Positions 52,775 through 62,967 of a stretch of DNA of 64,000 bases are shown piece after piece. A program made the position numbers and the translations under genes. Positions within the stretch are counted from its first letter, which is position 1; every line of letters starts with the position of its first letter. Below the pieces are notes generated by a model. It saw only the letters and a list, made by a program, of their open reading frames with translations. It was not told where the DNA came from and searched no databases. Source of the stretch: Streptomyces sp. NBC_00442 (lineage in GTDB: Bacteria; Actinomycetota; Actinomycetes; Streptomycetales; Streptomycetaceae). The stretch lies in the NCBI RefSeq assembly GCF_036014195.1, contig NZ_CP107918.1, positions 124,001 to 188,000 on the forward strand, read 5' to 3'.

Positions 52775-54133
52775 TCAAATAGCTTTGTCGCGGCGCCCCG
52801 TCGTGGCGATGACCACCGCACCCAGCACACAGGCGACGCCGGCCGCGAGGTAGGCGAGGTGGTAGCCGGTGAGTTGGTCGTCGCTGGTTGCCGCTATCAG
52901 GACCATGACCGCCACGCCGACGCTCGCGCCGATCTGTTGTGCCACCACGTTCACCGCGCCGGCGACCGCGTGGCGCTCGGGCTCGACGCCGGTGAGGCCC
53001 GCGGACGTCATCGAGGGGAAGTTCAGTCCCTGGCCAATGCCGCTGATCACCAGGCCGGGCAGCACGTGCAGCACGTAGTCGCCCTGGTGGGGCGTGCTCA
53101 TCCACAGCGCCGTCCCCACGCCGATCAGGACGAGCCCGACGGTCATCAGCGTACGGGGCGTGTACTTGGCAAGGAGGCGCCCGGTGGCGAAGTTGGCGGT
53201 CAGGAAGACGCCCGCCGACATCGGCACCAGGGCGAGCCCGGACTCGACCGGCGAGTACTTCAGCATCCCCTGCAGATACAGCGGTGCGAAGAACAGCATC
53301 CCCACCGAGCCCATGTACTGGAGGAACGCCGCCAGGCTCGCGGACCGCACCGAGGAGAGCCGGAAAAGTCCCAGCGGAAGCACCGGGTCGGGCGTGCCGC
53401 GCTCGCGTGCCACGAAGAGCACCAGGCACAGCACCGCGGCGCAGAGTGAACCCCACGCCACCGCACCACCACTGCTCGCGCCGACGACCAGCAGGGTGAG
53501 GCCGATCGTGCCCGAGATCGCTCCGGGCAGGTCGAGGCGGCCGCCGCGTCCGACACCGCCGGGCAGCCCGGCGCGCGTCGCGGACAGCACCGCCACGCCC
53601 ACCGCCACCGAAAACCACAGCACCGAGCGCCAGCCGAAGAACTGGGTCAGCACACCTCCCAGCATCACACCGCCGCTGAAACTCGCCGCGCCGACCGCGG
53701 CGTACACGCTGAAGGCCCTGTTGCGTTCCGGTCCGGCCGGGAACACCTCGGTGAGCAGGGCCAGCGCGGCCGGTCCCGACAGGGCCGCTCCGATGCCCTG
53801 GGCCGCTCGCGCACCAAGCAGCATCGCGGTGCTCGGTGCGACGGCGCCGACCAGCGCGGCCAGCGTGAACAGGGCGATCCCGGCCTCGAACACCCGGCGC
53901 CGGCCGAACACATCGGCCAGCCGTCCACCCACCAGCAGGAAGCCGGCGAAGGTGACGGCGTAGGCGATCATGACCCATTGGAGGGTGGCTTCGTCGAGGT
54001 GGAAGCGTTCCCCGACGGACGGCAGGGCGGCGTTGAGGACGCCCAGACCGCTCACGTCCAGAGCGAGCGCCCCGGCCAGTACGCCGAGTGCCAGGCCCGG
54101 CCTGTGTCGTTGCATCACGTCGGTCGTCGTCAT
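52775..54133 (-). CDS. MFS transporter, DHA2-like
   Basis: 452 aa, about 14 helices. TM1 DVSGLGVLNAALPSVGERF, motif A GGRLADVFGRRRVFEAG, motif C-like GGVMLGGVLTQFFGWRSVLW. Drug-efflux type. ATG 54133 with GGGGGG upstream. It is the last gene before the gene-free stretch leading to the PKS; it could export the cluster's product but reads away from it, so membership is uncertain. Confidence 0.92.
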   Translation of the reverse strand: MTTTDVMQRHRPGLALGVLAGALALDVSGLGVLNAALPSVGERFHLDEATLQWVMIAYAVTFAGFLLVGGRLADVFGRRRVFEAGIALFTLAALVGAVAPSTAMLLGARAAQGIGAALSGPAALALLTEVFPAGPERNRAFSVYAAVGAASFSGGVMLGGVLTQFFGWRSVLWFSVAVGVAVLSATRAGLPGGVGRGGRLDLPGAISGTIGLTLLVVGASSGGAVAWGSLCAAVLCLVLFVARERGTPDPVLPLGLFRLSSVRSASLAAFLQYMGSVGMLFFAPLYLQGMLKYSPVESGLALVPMSAGVFLTANFATGRLLAKYTPRTLMTVGLVLIGVGTALWMSTPHQGDYVLHVLPGLVISGIGQGLNFPSMTSAGLTGVEPERHAVAGAVNVVAQQIGASVGVAVMVLIAATSDDQLTGYHLAYLAAGVACVLGAVVIATTGRRDKAI

Positions 54134-55120: not shown

Positions 55121-58100
55121 ATGCCCCACGAGCGCGCAGTGCGAGATGCGCATGCCCTGTCAGAGATTCTGCTGTCGCGTGTCGCCGAGCTGATGGACTC
55201 ACCCGATGAGGCCGTGGATCGCTGGACACCGATGCACCAGTACGGCCTCGACTCCGTCAAGTTCTCCACGCTCGCCGCGGCAATGTCGGATCTGCTTGGC
55301 TGGAAAGTGCCCGTCACGTGGATGTGGCAGTACCCGACGGTCGACGCACTGTCCCGTGCACTCGCCGAAGGCCCGCGTTCCGCGACGAAGTCCGCTCCGA
55401 GCAAAGACCACCGGGCGGCGTCGCACGAACCCATCGCCATCGTGGGCATCGGCTGCCGCTTCCCGGGCGGACCGGACCCGTCCGCGTTCTGGCAGCTGCT
55501 GTCCGAGGGCCGGGACGCCGTCGGCCCGGTGCCGGCCGCGCGGCGCGACCTGCTGGGCGACGCGGTGCGCTGGGGCGGATTCATCGACGGCATCGACCGG
55601 TTCGATCCGCTGTTCTTCGGCATCTCGCCGCGCGAAGCCGTCCAGATGGACCCCCAGCAGCGTCTGATCCTGGAACTGGCCTGGGAGGCACTGGAGGACG
55701 CGGGCATCGCGCCCGGCAGCCTCGCCGGCACCGAGACCGGCGTGTTCATGGCCTCCTGCTGGGGCGACTACGCGGCGCTGGCGCACTATCGCGGGCCCGA
55801 CGTCCAGATCACCCCGCACACGGCGACCGGCATGCACGACGGCATCATCGCCAACCGCGTCTCCTACGTACTCGGCCTGCAGGGCCCCAGCATGGCCATC
55901 GACGCCGCCTGCGCGGGATCCCTCGTCTCCGTGCACACGGGCTGTCAGTCCCTCTGGATGGGCGAGAGCGACCTGGTGCTGGCCGGCGGAGTCAACCTGA
56001 GCTTCGTCTCCGACTACTACACCGCCATGGACGCGATGGGCGCGCTCGCCCCGGACGGCCGCTGCAAGTCCTTCGACGCACGGGCCGACGGCTATGTCCG
56101 CGGCGAGGGCGCCGGAGTGGTCGTCCTTGCGCCCCTGAGCGTGGCCCTGGAACGCGAGCTTCCGGTGTACTGCGTGATCAAGGGCAGCTCGTCCCAGAAC
56201 GACGGCGTGAGCAACGGGATGACCGCGCCCAACCCGCAGGCGCAGGAACTGATGCTCCGCAACGCCTACCGCCGGGCCGGCATCGCACCCGCCCAGGTGG
56301 ACTACATCGAGTGCCACGGCTCCGCGACACCTCTCGGCGACCCCATCGAGGCCAACGCCATCGGAGCCGTCCTGGGCGGCGACCGCAAGGACCCGTTGCT
56401 GCTCGGCTCCGTCAAGTCGAATGTCGGACACCTGGAAGCGGCCGCCGGCATCGTGGGTCTGGTCAAGCTCGCCCTGTCGATCCGCAACGGCGTCCTGCCG
56501 CCGAGCCTGCACTATGCCGCGCCCAACCCTCAGATCATGTTCGAGGAGTACAACCTCGCCGTCCAGGACCGGTTGACGCCATGGCCGCGGCGGTCCGACG
56601 CGCGCCGGGGCGGTGTCAGCTCGTTCGGTTTCGGCGGCGCGATCAGCCACGTCGTGGTGGAGGAACTGCCGCGCCCCGAGGGCGCGCTCGTCCTGCTGGC
56701 CGGGGACTCCCGGGAGGCGCTGGCCGAGCGGGCCGCGGCGCTGCGGGACGAGACCGATCTGCGTGCGGTCTGCCAACGGGCGCCCGGTGAGGGCGGGTTC
56801 AGGCTCGCGGTCACGGCGCGCTCCATGCCCGAGCTCAGGACCAAGCTGGATGCCTTCCATGCCGGCGCTCCGGCCGAAGGACTGAGCGTCGGCGAGCCCG
56901 CCGCGCGTGCGCCGCGCGTGGCGTTCCTGTTCTCGGGCAACGGCTCGCAGTGGGTGGGGATGGGCAGGCAGCTGCTCGCCGGCATGCCCGTGTTCCGCCG
57001 GTCGATGATGCGCTCCGACCGGCGGATGCGGGAGCTTGTGGGCTTCTCGCTCGTCGAGCAACTCCTCGCGCCCGACGGCCGCATCGACGACATGGACGTC
57101 TTCCAGCCGCTGCTGTTCTCCCTCCAGGTCGCGCTCGCCGACGCATGGCGCTCGCTGGGGGTGGAGCCGGACGTCGTCGTGGGGCAGAGCGTCGGCGAGT
57201 TCGCCGCCGCGCACATCGCCGGTGCGCTCGACTTCCAGGACGCGTCCCGGCTGGCCGCCCACCACGGCCGGCTCCTGCAGCACCTGGCCGTCGGACGCGG
57301 TGACGGCCTCGCCGTCATGGCCGGCGCCGACGTGACCGGGCAGTACCTCACCGAAGGCCTCACCCTGTCCGGCTACAACGGCCTCAACTCCACCCTCGTG
57401 ACCGGCACTTCGCAGGACATCGACGATCTCGCACGGCACCTGACCGAGGACGGCGTCACCAGCCACCGGGTCCGGATGGGGCACGCGCCCCACTCACCCC
57501 TGATCGACCACGTCCTCGCCCCGCTCACGGCGGAGCTCGACGGCATCGTGCCGCGCACCACGCGCATCCCGATGATCTCGACGGTCACCGGCGAACGCGT
57601 GGACGGCGCGGAGCTCGGCCCCGGCTACTGGGCCGCCAACCTGCGCCAGGAGATCCACATGGTCGGCGCCCTGACGGCCCTGCGCGACCACGACATCGAC
57701 GCGGTCGTCGAAATCAGCCCGCACCCCCTGCTCCTGAAGTCCGTCTCGGAGATCCTGCCGGCGGCCACCCTGCCCTCGCTGCGGCGCGGCGCCGACGAAG
57801 CGTCGACCCTGCTCGGGTCGCTCGGCGCGCTGTACGCCGCCGGGCTCTCCGTCACGCCCGCCCCCTTCCTCGCGGGAGACGGGGGACGGCACGTCGCCCC
57901 TGGCCGGGGCGGTGGTGCCACGGCCGAGGCGCGGCCGTACCTCGTGCCCGTCACGGCGCGTACGGCCGCCGCGCTCACCGACACCTGCCGCGAGCTGTCC
58001 AACCACGTCGAGCGCCACCCCGGGCTGCGGGTCAGCGACCTGTCCTACACGCTCGCGACCCGGCGCACCCACCACAACCACCGGATCGCGCTGTTCGCCC

Positions 58101-61100
58101 GCGACCGGCAGGACGTCCTGGACGGACTCGCCCGGATCGCCGCCGGCCAACCGCACCCCGACATCGTCACGGGTACGGTCACCGGCGGCGGCGACCGGCG
58201 GGTGGCGCTGGTGTTCTCCGGCGGCGGTACGCAGTGGGTCGGCATGGGACGCGAACTCATGGCCTCGCACGCCGGGTTCCGCGGGTGGATGAACGCCTGC
58301 GACGCGGCCGTGCGCGCCGCCGGCGGCTGCTCGGTGCTCGACGAGCTCGTGGCCCCGGCGGACCGGTCCAGGTTCGAGGAGATGGACTTCCAGCAGCCCG
58401 TGCTGTTCGCCTTGCAGGTGTCGCTGGCGAAGGTCTGGCTCGACCTGGGCATCGAGCCGGCCGCCGTCGTCGGGCACAGCCTGGGCGAGGTCGCGGCCGC
58501 ATGTGTCGCGGGCGCGCTGTCGCTGGAGGACGCGGCGCGTGTCGTGGTCGCCCGGTCGCACCTGCTGGAGCGGAAGGCGGCCGCGGGCGCCATGATCTCG
58601 GTCGACCTGCCGGAGCACGAACTGCTGCCGCGGCTGGTCCCGTACGCGGAACACGCGGCGATCGCCGTGGTGAACAGCCCCACCAGTGCGGCGGTCTCCG
58701 GGTCGCCCGAGGCCGTCGCCGCGCTGGAGGCCGACCTCGAGCGGGACGGGATCTCCACCCGGCGGATCCGCGTCGAACGGCCGGTGCACAGCCCCGGCAT
58801 GGACCCGCTGACCGAGCCGCTGCGCGCACGCATCGACGGGATCACCCCGCGGGCGAACACCATCGAGTTCCGTTCCACCGCGCTGGCCGACACGGTGAAC
58901 CCGGTCGTGGACGTCGACTACTGGGTGCACAATCTGCGCAACCAGGTGCGGTTCGCCGAGACGATCGCCTCGCTGGTGGACGACGGTGTCGGCACGTTCA
59001 TCGAGATCGGCCCGCACGAGACGCTGCGCGGCGCCGTCGAGGAGATCGCGCTGGCCCGCGGTGTGCAGGTGCACGCCGTCAACTCCCTGCGGCGCGACGA
59101 GAGCGACGTCCGCTGCCTGCTCGGCGCCGCCGCCTCGCTCTACGTCAGAGGCCTCCCGCTGACCTACGACTCCTTGTTCACCGACGACGTCGAGGTCGTG
59201 GAGACCCCGCTCGTGCCCTGGCAGAAGGACCGCTACTGGCTGGACACGGCGCCCCGCCCCCAGGCCCTTGCCTCAGCGCCCGCCGCCGAGCCCGCCGCCG
59301 AGCCCGTGGCGGCGACCGTGCGGCCGGCGGCGGCCGAGGCGGCGCCGGGCCGGCCGCTGGGTGACGTTGTCCTCGACGAGATCGCCGACGCCGTGGGCGT
59401 GCCGGCGAGCCAGTTCGGCCAGGGCACCCACCTGCGCGAGTTCGGCCTCGACTCGATGCTCGCGCTCCGCCTCGTCAACAGGCTGCAGTCGCTCTTCGGA
59501 CACCGGGTGTCGCCCGTGGTGTTCCTGGACGGCCGCACCGTACCGGAGGTGGTCGGCCACATCGTCGAAACCATCGAAGGGCCGGCCGCGGCCCCGCCCG
59601 CTGCCGCAAAGGACCCCGCCCCCGCCCCCGTCCCCGCCGCGAAAGCGGCGCAGGTCCCGGGGCCCCGGGACTTCCTGGACGACCTGTCCGAGCTCGACGC
59701 CGAGGAACTGGTGGAGGAACTGGTCGCGCGCGGACTCCTCGATCCCGCCGACACCCCCGCGGCGCAACGGCTGCGCGCCGGCGGTCTCGGCCTCGCGGTG
59801 GCGCCGGCCTCGCACGGCCAGGCCTCGCTGTGGTTCATGCAGATGGTCGCGCCGGACGCCGTGCCCTACAACTTCATGGTGGCCGCCCGGATCCGGACCA
59901 AGGTGGACGAGACGGCGCTCGAGGACGCCGTACGCACCGTGATGGAGCGCCATCCGGCGCTGCGCACCCTGTTCGTGGAGGCGGGCGGCAGCCCGTACCA
60001 GGTCGTCCTCGACGAGCCGGTGTACGAGTTCGTCGTGGTGGACAGCGCGGACCTGGACGACGAAGAGGCCCGTGAGGAACTGGCCGAGTACGGACACCTG
60101 CCGCTCGACATGGACAACGGGCCGCTGGTCCGGGTGGTCCTGATGGCGCGCGGACCCGCCGACCACTACCTGCTGGTGCTCGTGCACCACATCGCCTCGG
60201 ACGCCGCGTCCGCGGACGTGATGATCCGGGAGCTCCAGGAGTACTACGAGGGCGCCGACCCCGCGGACGGCGAACCGGTCTCCCCCTACACCGAGTTCGT
60301 CGAGTGGGAGCGCCAGTGGCTGGCCGGCCCCGCCGCCGACGCGGCGCTGCGGTGGTGGTCGCGCGAGCTGGCCGATCCGCCCGCCCGTGTCGAGCTGTCC
60401 TCCATGGAGCGCCCGCCGGGCGTCACGTACGAGGGCCGCGACCTGACCCTGCGCTGGAGCCGCGAAGAGACCCGGCTGCTACGGGAGTTCGCGGTACGCG
60501 AAGGCGTGTCGATCAGCAGTGTCGTCCTGGCCGGCTTCTTCGCCACGCTCAACCGGGCGGCCGGAGCCGAGGACTCCGTCCTCGCCACCGCCATCGCCCA
60601 GCGCGGCGAGCCCGGCTGGGAGTCCGCCATCGGCTACTACCTGAACACGGTCCTGGTGCGGGCGCATCCCGCGGGCGACCGGAGCTTCCGCGATCTGCTG
60701 CGCGAGGTCCACGCCTTCTCGCTGGGCCTGTTGGAGCACATGAACTACCCGCTCGACCTCCTGGCGTCCGCCCTGAAGCCACCGAGGGCCGAAGGGCGCT
60801 CTCCGTGGTTCGACGTGGTGGTGAACTGGCTGTCCTCGGACGCCTTCCCCCGGTCGGTGAAGCTCTTCCACGGCATAGGGGACACCATCGAGCCCGACGG
60901 CGCCCTCCCCCTCGAACCGCTTCAAGTGCGCAGGCACCTCGCCAAATTCGACCTGGAGATCTCGATGGCCGACATCGACGGCGAGGTGGTCGGCCACATC
61001 CAGTACAAACCGAGCTACCTGGAAAGGCAGACCGTGACGGACCTGCTCGCGCTCTACCGCACCGTGCTCTTCGACTCGATCGCCCGCCCCGACCTGGCAC

Positions 61101-61147
61101 TTCAGGACGTCGCGCCGAGCATCCGCCCCCAGGGGGCGGACCAGTGA
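55121..61147 (+). CDS. Hybrid PKS/NRPS protein ACP-KS-AT-AT-ACP-C with tandem acyltransferases
   Basis: 2008 aa assembly-line enzyme. N-terminal carrier (15-85; pantetheine Ser S45 in YGLDSVKF); KS (103-515) with C264 in DAACAGSLVS, H399 in ECHGSATPLGDPIE and H437 in KSNVGHLEA, all intact; AT1 (600-880; S690 in GQSVGE, H791); a second KS-AT-type linker (940-1020); AT2 (1028-1315; S1120 in GHSLGE, H1223); ACP (1410-1487; S1445 in FGLDSMLAL); NRPS condensation domain (about 1555-2000; HHIASDA at 1689-1695, last Gly of HHxxxDG is Ala). No KR, DH, ER or TE. AT1 has His (H715) where extender ATs have Arg; AT2 keeps it (R1145). GAGGAG precedes the ATG. Confidence 0.93.
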   Translation: MPHERAVRDAHALSEILLSRVAELMDSPDEAVDRWTPMHQYGLDSVKFSTLAAAMSDLLGWKVPVTWMWQYPTVDALSRALAEGPRSATKSAPSKDHRAASHEPIAIVGIGCRFPGGPDPSAFWQLLSEGRDAVGPVPAARRDLLGDAVRWGGFIDGIDRFDPLFFGISPREAVQMDPQQRLILELAWEALEDAGIAPGSLAGTETGVFMASCWGDYAALAHYRGPDVQITPHTATGMHDGIIANRVSYVLGLQGPSMAIDAACAGSLVSVHTGCQSLWMGESDLVLAGGVNLSFVSDYYTAMDAMGALAPDGRCKSFDARADGYVRGEGAGVVVLAPLSVALERELPVYCVIKGSSSQNDGVSNGMTAPNPQAQELMLRNAYRRAGIAPAQVDYIECHGSATPLGDPIEANAIGAVLGGDRKDPLLLGSVKSNVGHLEAAAGIVGLVKLALSIRNGVLPPSLHYAAPNPQIMFEEYNLAVQDRLTPWPRRSDARRGGVSSFGFGGAISHVVVEELPRPEGALVLLAGDSREALAERAAALRDETDLRAVCQRAPGEGGFRLAVTARSMPELRTKLDAFHAGAPAEGLSVGEPAARAPRVAFLFSGNGSQWVGMGRQLLAGMPVFRRSMMRSDRRMRELVGFSLVEQLLAPDGRIDDMDVFQPLLFSLQVALADAWRSLGVEPDVVVGQSVGEFAAAHIAGALDFQDASRLAAHHGRLLQHLAVGRGDGLAVMAGADVTGQYLTEGLTLSGYNGLNSTLVTGTSQDIDDLARHLTEDGVTSHRVRMGHAPHSPLIDHVLAPLTAELDGIVPRTTRIPMISTVTGERVDGAELGPGYWAANLRQEIHMVGALTALRDHDIDAVVEISPHPLLLKSVSEILPAATLPSLRRGADEASTLLGSLGALYAAGLSVTPAPFLAGDGGRHVAPGRGGGATAEARPYLVPVTARTAAALTDTCRELSNHVERHPGLRVSDLSYTLATRRTHHNHRIALFARDRQDVLDGLARIAAGQPHPDIVTGTVTGGGDRRVALVFSGGGTQWVGMGRELMASHAGFRGWMNACDAAVRAAGGCSVLDELVAPADRSRFEEMDFQQPVLFALQVSLAKVWLDLGIEPAAVVGHSLGEVAAACVAGALSLEDAARVVVARSHLLERKAAAGAMISVDLPEHELLPRLVPYAEHAAIAVVNSPTSAAVSGSPEAVAALEADLERDGISTRRIRVERPVHSPGMDPLTEPLRARIDGITPRANTIEFRSTALADTVNPVVDVDYWVHNLRNQVRFAETIASLVDDGVGTFIEIGPHETLRGAVEEIALARGVQVHAVNSLRRDESDVRCLLGAAASLYVRGLPLTYDSLFTDDVEVVETPLVPWQKDRYWLDTAPRPQALASAPAAEPAAEPVAATVRPAAAEAAPGRPLGDVVLDEIADAVGVPASQFGQGTHLREFGLDSMLALRLVNRLQSLFGHRVSPVVFLDGRTVPEVVGHIVETIEGPAAAPPAAAKDPAPAPVPAAKAAQVPGPRDFLDDLSELDAEELVEELVARGLLDPADTPAAQRLRAGGLGLAVAPASHGQASLWFMQMVAPDAVPYNFMVAARIRTKVDETALEDAVRTVMERHPALRTLFVEAGGSPYQVVLDEPVYEFVVVDSADLDDEEAREELAEYGHLPLDMDNGPLVRVVLMARGPADHYLLVLVHHIASDAASADVMIRELQEYYEGADPADGEPVSPYTEFVEWERQWLAGPAADAALRWWSRELADPPARVELSSMERPPGVTYEGRDLTLRWSREETRLLREFAVREGVSISSVVLAGFFATLNRAAGAEDSVLATAIAQRGEPGWESAIGYYLNTVLVRAHPAGDRSFRDLLREVHAFSLGLLEHMNYPLDLLASALKPPRAEGRSPWFDVVVNWLSSDAFPRSVKLFHGIGDTIEPDGALPLEPLQVRRHLAKFDLEISMADIDGEVVGHIQYKPSYLERQTVTDLLALYRTVLFDSIARPDLALQDVAPSIRPQGADQ

Positions 61148-62967
61148 GCGACACCCTGCACGCCGCCTTCGTCGAGCAGGCGGTCAAGAATCCCGACGCG
61201 CCCGCGGTCTACTCCGACGCCGGCGTCCTGACCTACGACGAACTGAACGAGCGGTCCCGCGCGCTGGCCGAACGGCTCGTCGCCGACGGCGCCGGCCCCG
61301 GAGTGCCGGTCGGCATCTGTGTCGAGCGCACCCCCGACCTGGTCGTCGGCATCCTGGCCATCCTGCGGACCGGCGCCTGCTATCTGCCCCTGGACCCCAA
61401 CTACCCTTCCGAGCGGCTGGCGTTCATGGTCCGCGACAGCGGGACCCGGATGCTGCTGACCACACCCGCGTCCCGGGCCGGCTGCCCCGCCGGGCCGACC
61501 GTGGTCGTCCTGGGCGAGACCGTGACGACGGAGCCCGGCGAGCGGCCCGTGCCGGTCGTGCCCGATGACACCGCCTACATCATCTACACGTCGGGATCCA
61601 CCGGCCGGCCCAAGGGCGTGGCCCTCCACCATCCCGGCTGCGTGGCCATGCTGGCCGAGATGGACCGTCTCTTCGAGGGACGCGACCTGAGCGGTGTCTC
61701 GGCGGCGAGTTCGGTCTGCTTCGACATGTCCGTGATGGAGATCTTCGCCGCACTGTGCCGCGGCGGCGCCGTCGTGCTCGTGGAGAGCGCCGTCCACCTG
61801 CCGGACAGCCGGTACGCCGACAGGATCACCCACCTCAACGTCGTCCCGTCCGTGATGAACAGCCTGCTCGACGCGGGCTCGCTGCCACCGAACGTGCGTA
61901 CCGTGGTGTTCGGGGGCGAACCCCTGCGGCGCAAGCTCGTGGACCGGGCCTACCGGGAGACCGGCGCCGATCGCGTCTACAACGCGTACGGCCCCACCGA
62001 GGGGACCGTGTTCTGCTCGGTCGAGCTGGTGCCCGAGGACGAGAGCGATGAGCCCACCATCGGCCCGCCGTCGCCCGGCGTCCGCGCCTACGTGCTCGAC
62101 GAGAACCTGCGGCAGCTGCCGGCCGGCGTGAGCGGCGAGCTGTACATCGGCGGCGTCGGCCTCGCCCACGGATACGTCAACCGGCCGCGCACCACGGCCG
62201 AACGGTTCGTGCCGGACCCGTTCCTCGACGGCGAACGCATGTATCGCACCGGTGACGTCGTCGCGTTCACCGAGGACGGCGCGCTCCGGTTCGGCGGCCG
62301 CGCCGACCACCAGGTCAAGCTGCGCGGGTTCCGCATCGAGCTGGAAGAGGTCGAGGCCCGGCTGACCGGCTGCCCCGAGGTCCGCGAGGCGGCCGCCGCC
62401 GTACGGGGCGGCAGGCTCATCGGGTACGTGGTGCCGGAGGGCGACGCCCGCGAGAGGGTCTGGTCGGACGCCGCTCTCCAGTCCGCGATCACCGGCAGGC
62501 TCTCCACCCAGCTGCCCGACCACATGGTGCCGGCAACGGTCGTGTTCCTTGCGGCACTTCCGCTGGCGCCGGGCGGCAAACTCGATCGCTCCGCGCTGCC
62601 GGAGCCCCCCGCCCCGGCGTCGTCCGGCGGGCCCATGGCGGCTCCGAGCACCGCGACCGAGATCGCGCTCGCCGAGATCTGGGGCGAACTGCTCGACCTG
62701 GAACCGGCGGGCATCGACGTCCATGCCGCCTTCTACGACCTCGGCGGTGACTCGCTGCTGCTGATCCGGCTGGCCCGGCTGATGACCAGGCGGTTCGACC
62801 GTCGCGTCCGGGTGCCCGATCTGTTCAGTTTCCGCGACATCTCCTCCCTCGCCGGCTGGCTCGACGACGACAGCGGCGCGGCACGCGAGGCCGTCACGTC
62901 GGCCCGTCTGCGCGCCGGCACCCGCCGCGCGGCGCTCCGTGGCCGCGCCGCGCCATCCGGCCGCTGA
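61144..62967 (+). CDS. NRPS protein, adenylation-PCP
   Basis: 607 aa. Adenylation domain (1-495): A3 YIIYTSGSTGRPKG, A4 FDMSVMEIF, A5 NAYGPTEGTV, A7 YRTGD, A8 GRADHQVKLRGFRIELEEVE, A10 Lys K479 in LAPGGKLDR. PCP (505-580) with S537 in LGGDSLLLI, then a basic tail. By eye the ten specificity residues read D-M-M-N-V-G-A-V-F-K; I cannot assign an amino acid. GTG start overlaps the previous stop (GTGA), so the upstream C domain and this A-PCP form one C-A-PCP module split over two coupled proteins. Confidence 0.93.
   Translation: MSDTLHAAFVEQAVKNPDAPAVYSDAGVLTYDELNERSRALAERLVADGAGPGVPVGICVERTPDLVVGILAILRTGACYLPLDPNYPSERLAFMVRDSGTRMLLTTPASRAGCPAGPTVVVLGETVTTEPGERPVPVVPDDTAYIIYTSGSTGRPKGVALHHPGCVAMLAEMDRLFEGRDLSGVSAASSVCFDMSVMEIFAALCRGGAVVLVESAVHLPDSRYADRITHLNVVPSVMNSLLDAGSLPPNVRTVVFGGEPLRRKLVDRAYRETGADRVYNAYGPTEGTVFCSVELVPEDESDEPTIGPPSPGVRAYVLDENLRQLPAGVSGELYIGGVGLAHGYVNRPRTTAERFVPDPFLDGERMYRTGDVVAFTEDGALRFGGRADHQVKLRGFRIELEEVEARLTGCPEVREAAAAVRGGRLIGYVVPEGDARERVWSDAALQSAITGRLSTQLPDHMVPATVVFLAALPLAPGGKLDRSALPEPPAPASSGGPMAAPSTATEIALAEIWGELLDLEPAGIDVHAAFYDLGGDSLLLIRLARLMTRRFDRRVRVPDLFSFRDISSLAGWLDDDSGAAREAVTSARLRAGTRRAALRGRAAPSGR

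What the first reader, a model, noticed from the sequence alone, without database searches (positions are those of the whole stretch)
55121..61147. Single polypeptide with two adjacent acyltransferases, one apparently a starter AT
The order ACP-KS-AT-AT-ACP-C is unusual: cis-AT modules normally have one AT. Each AT carries its own upstream linker, a catalytic Ser (S690, S1120) and a His (H791, H1223), so both look functional. The Arg that binds the free carboxylate of malonyl-type extenders is present in AT2 (R1145) but is His (H715) in AT1, as in loading ATs that take monocarboxylic acids; AT1 also has GQS for GHS. With an ACP at the very N-terminus, a coherent reading is AT1 loads a simple acyl starter on the N-terminal ACP, KS takes it, AT2 supplies the extender to the second ACP, and the C domain joins the product to an amino acid: loading and extension fused in one module.
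Basis: partly seen in the sequence, partly recalled or inferred. Interest (0 to 1): 0.85.

Follow-up and report, generated by a model that had tools for sequence, protein, structure and literature searches.

The report
Salinosporamide-type synthase with formyltransferase partner
The double-acyltransferase protein is a relative of the enzyme that starts the anticancer compound salinosporamide, so its odd domain order is already known, but here it is accompanied by a folate-type formyltransferase, which suggests that chain building starts from a one-carbon formyl unit.

Summary
In detail: 55121-61147 is one uninterrupted 2008-residue protein, ACP-KS-AT-AT-ACP-C, with every residue number as stated; AT1 has His715 where extender ATs have Arg. 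It is not a new architecture. The next genes are A-PCP, a standalone ketosynthase matching crystallised SalC over its whole length (948 bits), P450 and MbtH, the order also found in Salinispora fenicalii, a salinosporamide species. AT1 and AT2 group with that protein's two ATs, and ACP-KS-AT-AT modules are published in myxobacteria and Streptomyces.

The unexpected part lies just outside the window: a formyltransferase gene. It was found close behind the P450 in 21 of 21 loci of this protein's clade and in 0 of 5 salinosporamide-type loci, and the two groups differ at fixed AT1 and KS active-site positions. Its nearest solved relative is the ALDH1L1 domain that passes formyl from folate to a carrier-protein phosphopantetheine. 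Best reading: the line starts on formyl, not acetyl, and with methylmalonyl, beta-hydroxyleucine and the SalC homologue makes an omuralide/lactacystin-type gamma-lactam-beta-lactone. Formyl priming and product are inferred; no metabolite is shown. AT1's job (loading formyl, or editing) is open.

The parts
55121..61147 (+). SalA-type hybrid PKS-NRPS, ACP-KS-AT1-AT2-ACP-C, 2008 aa
55200..55370 (+). N-terminal (loading) ACP, Ser45 (approximate borders)
   Evidence: one of two PP-binding stretches; GLDS at residue 42
55427..56680 (+). KS, C264-H399-H437, with DAACAGSL and HGSAT in place of DTACSSSL and HGTGT
56921..57910 (+). AT1, loading-type AT: GQS, His715 in the Arg column, GHAPHS
58211..59140 (+). 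AT2, extender-type AT: GHS, Arg1145, RPVHS
   Evidence: (residues 1031-1340)
59366..59563 (+). second ACP, Ser1445
   Evidence: (residues 1416-1481)
59798..61108 (+). condensation domain, HHxxxD
   Evidence: (residues 1560-1996)
61144..62967 (+). SalB-type A-PCP
   Evidence: 59-65% to the SalB-like genes of L012, L013, L015
63002..64000 (+). SalC-type standalone ketosynthase; continues to about 64786, past the window end
   Evidence: 948 bits to SalC 7s2x over residues 2-595
52775..54133 (-). MFS transporter, left neighbour of the cluster
   Evidence: 74-86% in 16 of 20 other loci of this clade

Best explanation
The protein is the SalA homologue of a compact salinosporamide-type gene set (MFS, A, B, C, P450, MbtH, formyltransferase in this genome) that most likely makes an omuralide/lactacystin-like gamma-lactam-beta-lactone. 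Shown by sequence: the genes, their relation to SalA, SalB, SalC and the next two genes of that set, the two AT types, and the companionship with the formyltransferase. Inferred: the formyltransferase moves formyl from 10-formyl-tetrahydrofolate to the phosphopantetheine of the N-terminal ACP, directly or through AT1; the KS takes formyl and joins it to the methylmalonyl unit that AT2 puts on the second ACP, giving methylmalonyl-semialdehyde thioester; the C domain puts this on a leucine-like amino acid held on A-PCP and beta-hydroxylated by the P450; the SalC homologue closes lactam and beta-lactone. Formyl (1 C), a propionate unit (3 C) and hydroxyleucine (6 C) give C10H15NO4, the formula of omuralide (formula recalled). 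AT1 would be the formyl loader or an editor that removes stray acetyl.
For: SalC match of 948 bits, sharing the active-site Cys and the HGTGT-to-YEANG change. Gene order A-B-C-P450-MbtH as in Salinispora fenicalii and two named Streptomyces. AT tree, 100/100 for both groups. Formyltransferase hit close behind the P450 in 21 of 21 loci of this clade (18, 3, window included) and no hit at E <= 1e-4 in 5 of 5 salinosporamide-type loci (20-26 kb each). In a draw of 276 genomes of the genus, 8 carry the formyltransferase (E <= 1e-60) and the same 8 carry an own-type SalC homologue; the ninth SalC genome (69% type) has none. Fixed clade differences: AT1 H788/P790 in 101 of 101 against Y and A/S in 20 of 20; KS A265 in 99 of 99 against S in 18 of 18 (gapped rows left out). 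Formyltransferase nearest solved relatives are ALDH1L1 N-terminal domains, with His103 and Asp139 on their His/Asp columns; that domain hands formyl to a carrier-protein phosphopantetheine (PMC8748788, passages). A-domain position 322 is Ala in 18 of 18 own-clade rows and Gly in 4 of 4 salinosporamide-type rows, fitting a smaller residue. Omuralide has the same bicycle with methyl at C7 and a hydroxyisobutyl group (PMC8009326, passages).
Against: No metabolite, enzyme assay or labelling. AT1 keeps its catalytic residues and is under purifying selection much like AT2 (dN/dS 0.25 against 0.23, medians of 7 pairs), which direct formylation of the ACP alone would not need. The A-domain code (DMMNVGAVFK, partly read by eye; position 278 varies among relatives) is not a standard leucine code as recalled. 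AT2's RPVH motif is not a textbook methylmalonyl signature (recalled). The formyltransferase falls far below the curated cut-off of every NCBIfam formyltransferase family that it hits. MbtH is not a fixed part: it was hit in 9 of 21 own-clade loci against 5 of 5 salinosporamide-type loci. Recalled feeding work on lactacystin derives part of the ring from isobutyrate; whether the would-be formyl carbon comes from the C1 pool was not read.
Confidence: 0.62

Rival explanations
1. Plain SalA chemistry: AT1 loads acetyl-CoA as in salinosporamide (acetyl starter recalled), and the formyltransferase does something else, such as formylating a finished product or a self-protection step.
For: AT1 groups with the loading-type ATs of salinosporamide-type proteins and keeps GQS and His715; AT1 is under purifying selection.
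Against: The formyltransferase is in 21 of 21 checked loci of this clade and 0 of 5 of the other, and it coincides with fixed changes at the AT1 and KS active sites. The amide nitrogen is consumed in the lactam, which leaves few sites to formylate (inference).
Confidence: 0.2
2. AT1 is an acyl hydrolase that clears wrong acyl groups from ACP1 while the formyltransferase does the priming; tandem hydrolase-AT pairs are known from trans-AT synthases (recalled). This is a sub-case of the best explanation, not an alternative to formyl priming.
For: Loss of the carboxylate-binding Arg; a separate candidate primer enzyme is present.
Against: AT1 groups with the loading-type ATs of the salinosporamide-type loci, which have no formyltransferase beside them and so presumably load; sequence cannot tell transfer from hydrolysis.
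Confidence: 0.15
3. AT1 is a dying duplicate and both acyl loadings are done by AT2.
For: Non-canonical GQS and loss of Arg.
Against: Ser and His intact in 101 of 101 own-clade rows; dN/dS 0.25; the AT1/AT2 split predates the split of the two clades.
Confidence: 0.03

Closest known systems
Salinosporamide SalA/SalB/SalC and the following P450 and MbtH genes (Salinispora)
   Same: S. fenicalii SalA-type protein (P0119) aligns over both ATs, both ACPs, KS and C; same gene order A-B-C-P450-MbtH; loading-type AT followed by extender-type AT; standalone SalC-type ketosynthase. A paper names ATL and AT1 in salA, salE as MbtH-like and S. fenicalii as a producer of salinosporamides B and D (PMC8609351, passages); that salD is the P450 is recalled.
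   Different: Extra formyltransferase gene; fixed differences in the AT1 and KS active sites; A-domain pocket Ala for Gly; MbtH not hit behind the P450 in 12 of 21 loci.
Split loading modules ACP-KS-AT-AT-KR-ACP: miuraenamide MiuA, jomthonic acid JomP1 (Streptomyces), with stigmatellin, myxothiazol, myxalamid, soraphen and chondramide named beside them
   Same: Loading AT placed after the KS and just before the extender AT; N-terminal loading ACP (PMC6117699 and PMC10051162, passages).
   Different: MiuA and JomP1 carry a KR; here there is none, and a C domain follows. The authors of JomP1 think its second AT inactive; here AT2 keeps its catalytic residues.
ALDH1L1 (10-formyl-THF dehydrogenase) N-terminal domain
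   Same: Closest solved relative of the formyltransferase, with His and Asp kept; donor step onto a carrier-protein phosphopantetheine.
   Different: Here a free 231-residue protein with no ALDH domain; the partner would be a PKS ACP.
Omuralide/lactacystin
   Same: The predicted skeleton equals omuralide, which shares the salinosporamide bicycle (PMC8009326, passages).
   Different: No producer strain or published lactacystin gene set was compared; none appeared in the listings of the held library.

Membership tests
Salinosporamide-type (sal) gene set | ACP-KS-AT-AT-ACP-C synthase | tested here: met
Salinosporamide-type (sal) gene set | A-PCP gene directly downstream | tested here: met
Salinosporamide-type (sal) gene set | standalone SalC ketosynthase with Cys and YEANG in place of the HGTGT His | tested here: met
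Salinosporamide-type (sal) gene set | P450 and MbtH next in order | tested here: met
   met in this genome; across the clade MbtH was hit in only 9 of 21 loci
Salinosporamide-type (sal) gene set | gamma-lactam-beta-lactone product | not testable with these tools
   no metabolite data
Acetyl-starting SalA (acetyl starter recalled) | no formyltransferase; AT1 with Y788 and A/S790; KS DTACS | tested here: not met
Published split loading module | ACP-KS-AT-AT core | tested here: met
Published split loading module | KR between the second AT and the ACP, as in MiuA and JomP1 | tested here: not met
Monocarboxylate-loading AT | no Arg at the FabD R117 column | tested here: met
Monocarboxylate-loading AT | loads a monocarboxylic acyl group | not testable with these tools
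   needs an assay
Carrier-protein formyltransferase (ALDH1L1 N-domain-like) | Formyl_trans_N homology with catalytic His and Asp | tested here: met
   (sequence; the fold model was too poor)
Carrier-protein formyltransferase (ALDH1L1 N-domain-like) | formylates a phosphopantetheine thiol | not testable with these tools
   needs an assay

The most novel reading that the evidence does not exclude
A modular PKS is primed with a one-carbon formyl unit: a free folate-dependent formyltransferase charges the loading ACP, as ALDH1L1 does in folate breakdown, and the former acetyl-loading AT has been retuned to accept or guard it. The clade would then be the omuralide/lactacystin gene family, spread over many Streptomyces and Kitasatospora.
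Probability: 0.6. Interest if true: 0.78.

Novelty: new variant of a known kind. Interest (0 to 1): 0.6.

Why it matters
It turns an apparent architectural oddity into a concrete prediction: an enzyme pair (formyltransferase plus loading ACP) that would let a polyketide line start from formyl and so put hydrogen, not methyl, on the beta-lactone carbon of a proteasome inhibitor. It links a gene family found in many Streptomyces and Kitasatospora to a known drug scaffold, and gives a natural experiment, two sister clades that seem to differ in starter supply, for reading loading-AT and KS specificity.

Tried and rejected
Novel architecture: rejected; the S. fenicalii SalA-type protein (P0119) shows the same domains in alignment, and the ACP-KS-AT-AT order is published in myxobacteria and Streptomyces. 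AT1 as dead duplicate: disfavoured. KS-type tetramic acid closure as in TAS1: the TAS1 KS is a far weaker match to the standalone KS than SalC (147 against 948 bits). AlphaFold of AT1 gave 74.7 pLDDT and only confirmed an AT fold (the 50 chains shown lie at about 7-9 A rmsd; avermectin loading AT 4rl1 at rank 19), so no pocket reading was made; the formyltransferase model was too poor to use (pLDDT 46). The genome-contig scan, with six patterns from one protein, gave 6 loci. The A-domain script missed the salinosporamide-type SalB genes; one search aligned four of them. One alignment and tree had two rows read on the wrong strand and one row with stops; those were fixed or dropped (L015_AT2) and rebuilt, and only one search is used. 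Literature: no lactacystin gene cluster and no formyl-primed PKS appeared in the listings of the held open-licence library; subscription papers are not held, so this is no proof of absence. The SalC paper (Bauman 2022) is not held and was not read.
Full report
Observation. The ORF 55121-61147 (+) encodes 2008 residues without a stop. Against DEBS and salinomycin ATs, and against five other PKS ATs of the genome and its single-domain AT (L008, which I take to be FabD), His715 of AT1 sits in the Arg column. A search with residues 520-1500 found 3602 proteins and listed the best 120, most of them about 2000 residues long. In an alignment of the query and these 120 rows the catalytic residues of both ATs, both ACPs and the C domain are kept wherever a row covers them (one exception in kind: GQS is GHS in 2 of the 20 other rows); both AT serines are present in 101 of 101 own-clade rows.

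What it is. The window ends inside the cluster, so the adjoining DNA was fetched. The next genes are an A-PCP protein, a standalone ketosynthase, a P450, an MbtH protein and a Formyl_trans_N protein. The ketosynthase matches SalC (7s2x) at 948 bits over residues 2-595 and shares with it the active-site Cys and the change from HGTGT to an Asn motif, YEANG. [quoted passage not shown] A paper on Salinispora names a loading AT (ATL) and an extender AT (AT1) in salA, says that salABCDEF make the core, that salE is MbtH-like, and that S. fenicalii makes salinosporamides B and D (PMC8609351, passages). Salinispora fenicalii (L012), Streptomyces MUM 2J (L013) and NBRC 110611 (L015) have the same A-B-C-P450-MbtH order. 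In a tree of 23 AT domains, the eight AT1 domains of both clades form one group and the seven AT2 domains another, each 100/100. So the tandem ATs are older than the split of the clades, and AT1 is an orthologue of the loading-type AT.

Known architecture. ACP-KS-AT-AT-KR-ACP is described for miuraenamide, with soraphen, myxothiazol, myxalamid and chondramide named beside it (PMC10051162, passages), and for jomthonic acid in Streptomyces caniferus (PMC6117699, passages). The first-stage novelty claim therefore falls.

The variant. Homologues split into a clade holding the window protein (101 aligned rows) and a salinosporamide-type set (20 rows; 53-61% identical in AT1 in the 19 that cover it). 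All 22 genomes with a SalC hit (window's own not counted) were fetched, and with the window and three named loci (L012, L013, L015) this gives 26 loci; three mycobacterial loci without a close SalC (L014, L016, L017) are left out of the count and have no formyltransferase hit. A formyltransferase gene of 231 residues stands within about 450 bases of the end of the P450 match. It was found in 18 of 18 loci of the first clade and 0 of 4 salinosporamide-type loci, then in 3 of 3 and 0 of 1 more: 21 of 21 against 0 of 5 at E <= 1e-4. Loci were sorted by SalC identity and by AT1/KS motifs, not by the formyltransferase. One of the 21 (L024) is a contig fragment without the AT region; in the other 20 the AT1 motif, read in the loci and in the window protein, agrees with the formyltransferase. 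In a draw of 276 genomes of the genus the gene occurs in 8 at E <= 1e-60, the same 8 that have an own-type SalC homologue; the ninth SalC genome is of the 69% type and has none (only top candidates were scored). The genus is Streptomyces by equal contig length of G066 and Streptomyces sp. NBC_01116. Among listed database rows, 18 of 119 formyltransferase entries share their longest-contig length with one of 98 SalA entries of this clade and 0 with the 20 others; the remaining 101 match neither list, which is capped and clustered. Fixed differences between the clades are AT1 H788/P790 (101 of 101) against Y and A/S (20 of 20), and KS A265 (99 of 99) against S (18 of 18). The A-domain pocket position 322 is Ala in 18 of 18 own-clade rows and Gly in the 4 salinosporamide-type rows compared.

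A result that blurs the picture: MbtH was hit in only 9 of 21 own-clade loci, against 5 of 5 salinosporamide-type loci. In 11 of the 12 without a hit the P450 match ends within 65 bases of the formyltransferase match (counted by hand), so the gene seems to be missing there. It may lie elsewhere in those genomes; this was not searched.

What the formyltransferase may do. Its best solved relatives are N-terminal domains of 10-formyl-THF dehydrogenase (69 bits). His103 and Asp139 match that enzyme's His and Asp; the Asn of methionyl-tRNA formyltransferases is Gly here and Ile there (the Asn and the catalytic roles are recalled). In ALDH1L1 this domain transfers formyl to the phosphopantetheine of an ACP-like domain (PMC8748788, passages). 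Transfer to the loading ACP would be the same chemistry. The common block is MFS-A-B-C-P450-(MbtH)-formyltransferase: the MFS gene was hit at 74-86% in 16 of 20 other loci (not in L026 and L069, only a 30% hit elsewhere in L045, and L024 is a fragment), while five downstream ORFs tested had no hit in any other locus of the clade at E <= 1e-10. No gene assigned in that block supplies an unusual unit, so common building blocks are expected. Formyl + methylmalonyl + beta-hydroxyleucine, closed by the SalC homologue, gives the omuralide skeleton, which shares its bicycle with salinosporamide (PMC8009326, passages). That salinosporamide starts from acetyl is recalled.

Open points. AT1 keeps its residues and has dN/dS near that of AT2 (0.25 and 0.23; KS 0.13, C 0.18, formyltransferase 0.19; medians of 7 pairs; a simple counting method). 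It is therefore probably doing something: loading formyl from CoA or from the formyltransferase, or editing. Leucine and methylmalonyl are inferred from the A pocket, the lack of supply genes and the formula match, not from a reliable code. Frequency, at E <= 1e-150: SalC homologues in 5 of 150 and 9 of 276 genomes of the genus (overlapping draws), 11 of 70 of a sister genus (Kitasatospora by equal contig length of G295 and K. kifunensis), 7 of 150 in a family draw, 3 of 197 in an order draw and 1 of 246 in a phylum draw, the window's own. The draws share genomes, and only the top candidates of each genome were scored.

Noticed in passing
P0077 (2595 aa): A natural fusion of the SalA-type synthase with the SalC-type ketosynthase in Streptomyces sp. 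NBC_01750, in the formyltransferase clade by its AT1 and KS motifs.
   Followed up: no
L014, L016 and L017: Mycobacterium europaeum, M. nebraskense and Mycolicibacterium sediminis hold distant SalA-like proteins (42-45% in the best segment). In L014 and L016 the best hits of both AT queries fall on the same stretch, and an A-domain gene (37-38%) follows. None of the three shows P450, MbtH or formyltransferase relatives, and their SalC-like hits are only 33-37%.
   Followed up: partly
L023-L025, L041-L043, L045, L048, L049, L051-L053: MbtH gene not hit behind the P450 in these 12 loci of the clade, though the window and 8 others have it.
   Followed up: partly
L015:13178-14182: The AT2 region of Streptomyces NBRC 110611 did not read through in one frame as cut (two stops), possibly an assembly error; dropped from the tree.
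   Followed up: no
P0186, P0193: Formyltransferase relatives at 72-74% occur in Micromonospora and Actinokineospora; their neighbours were not looked at.
   Followed up: no
G000:C1:3745298-3763675 and 6946613-6947575: Other PKS regions of the same genome: four AT domains near 3.75 Mb and one near 6.95 Mb.
   Followed up: no
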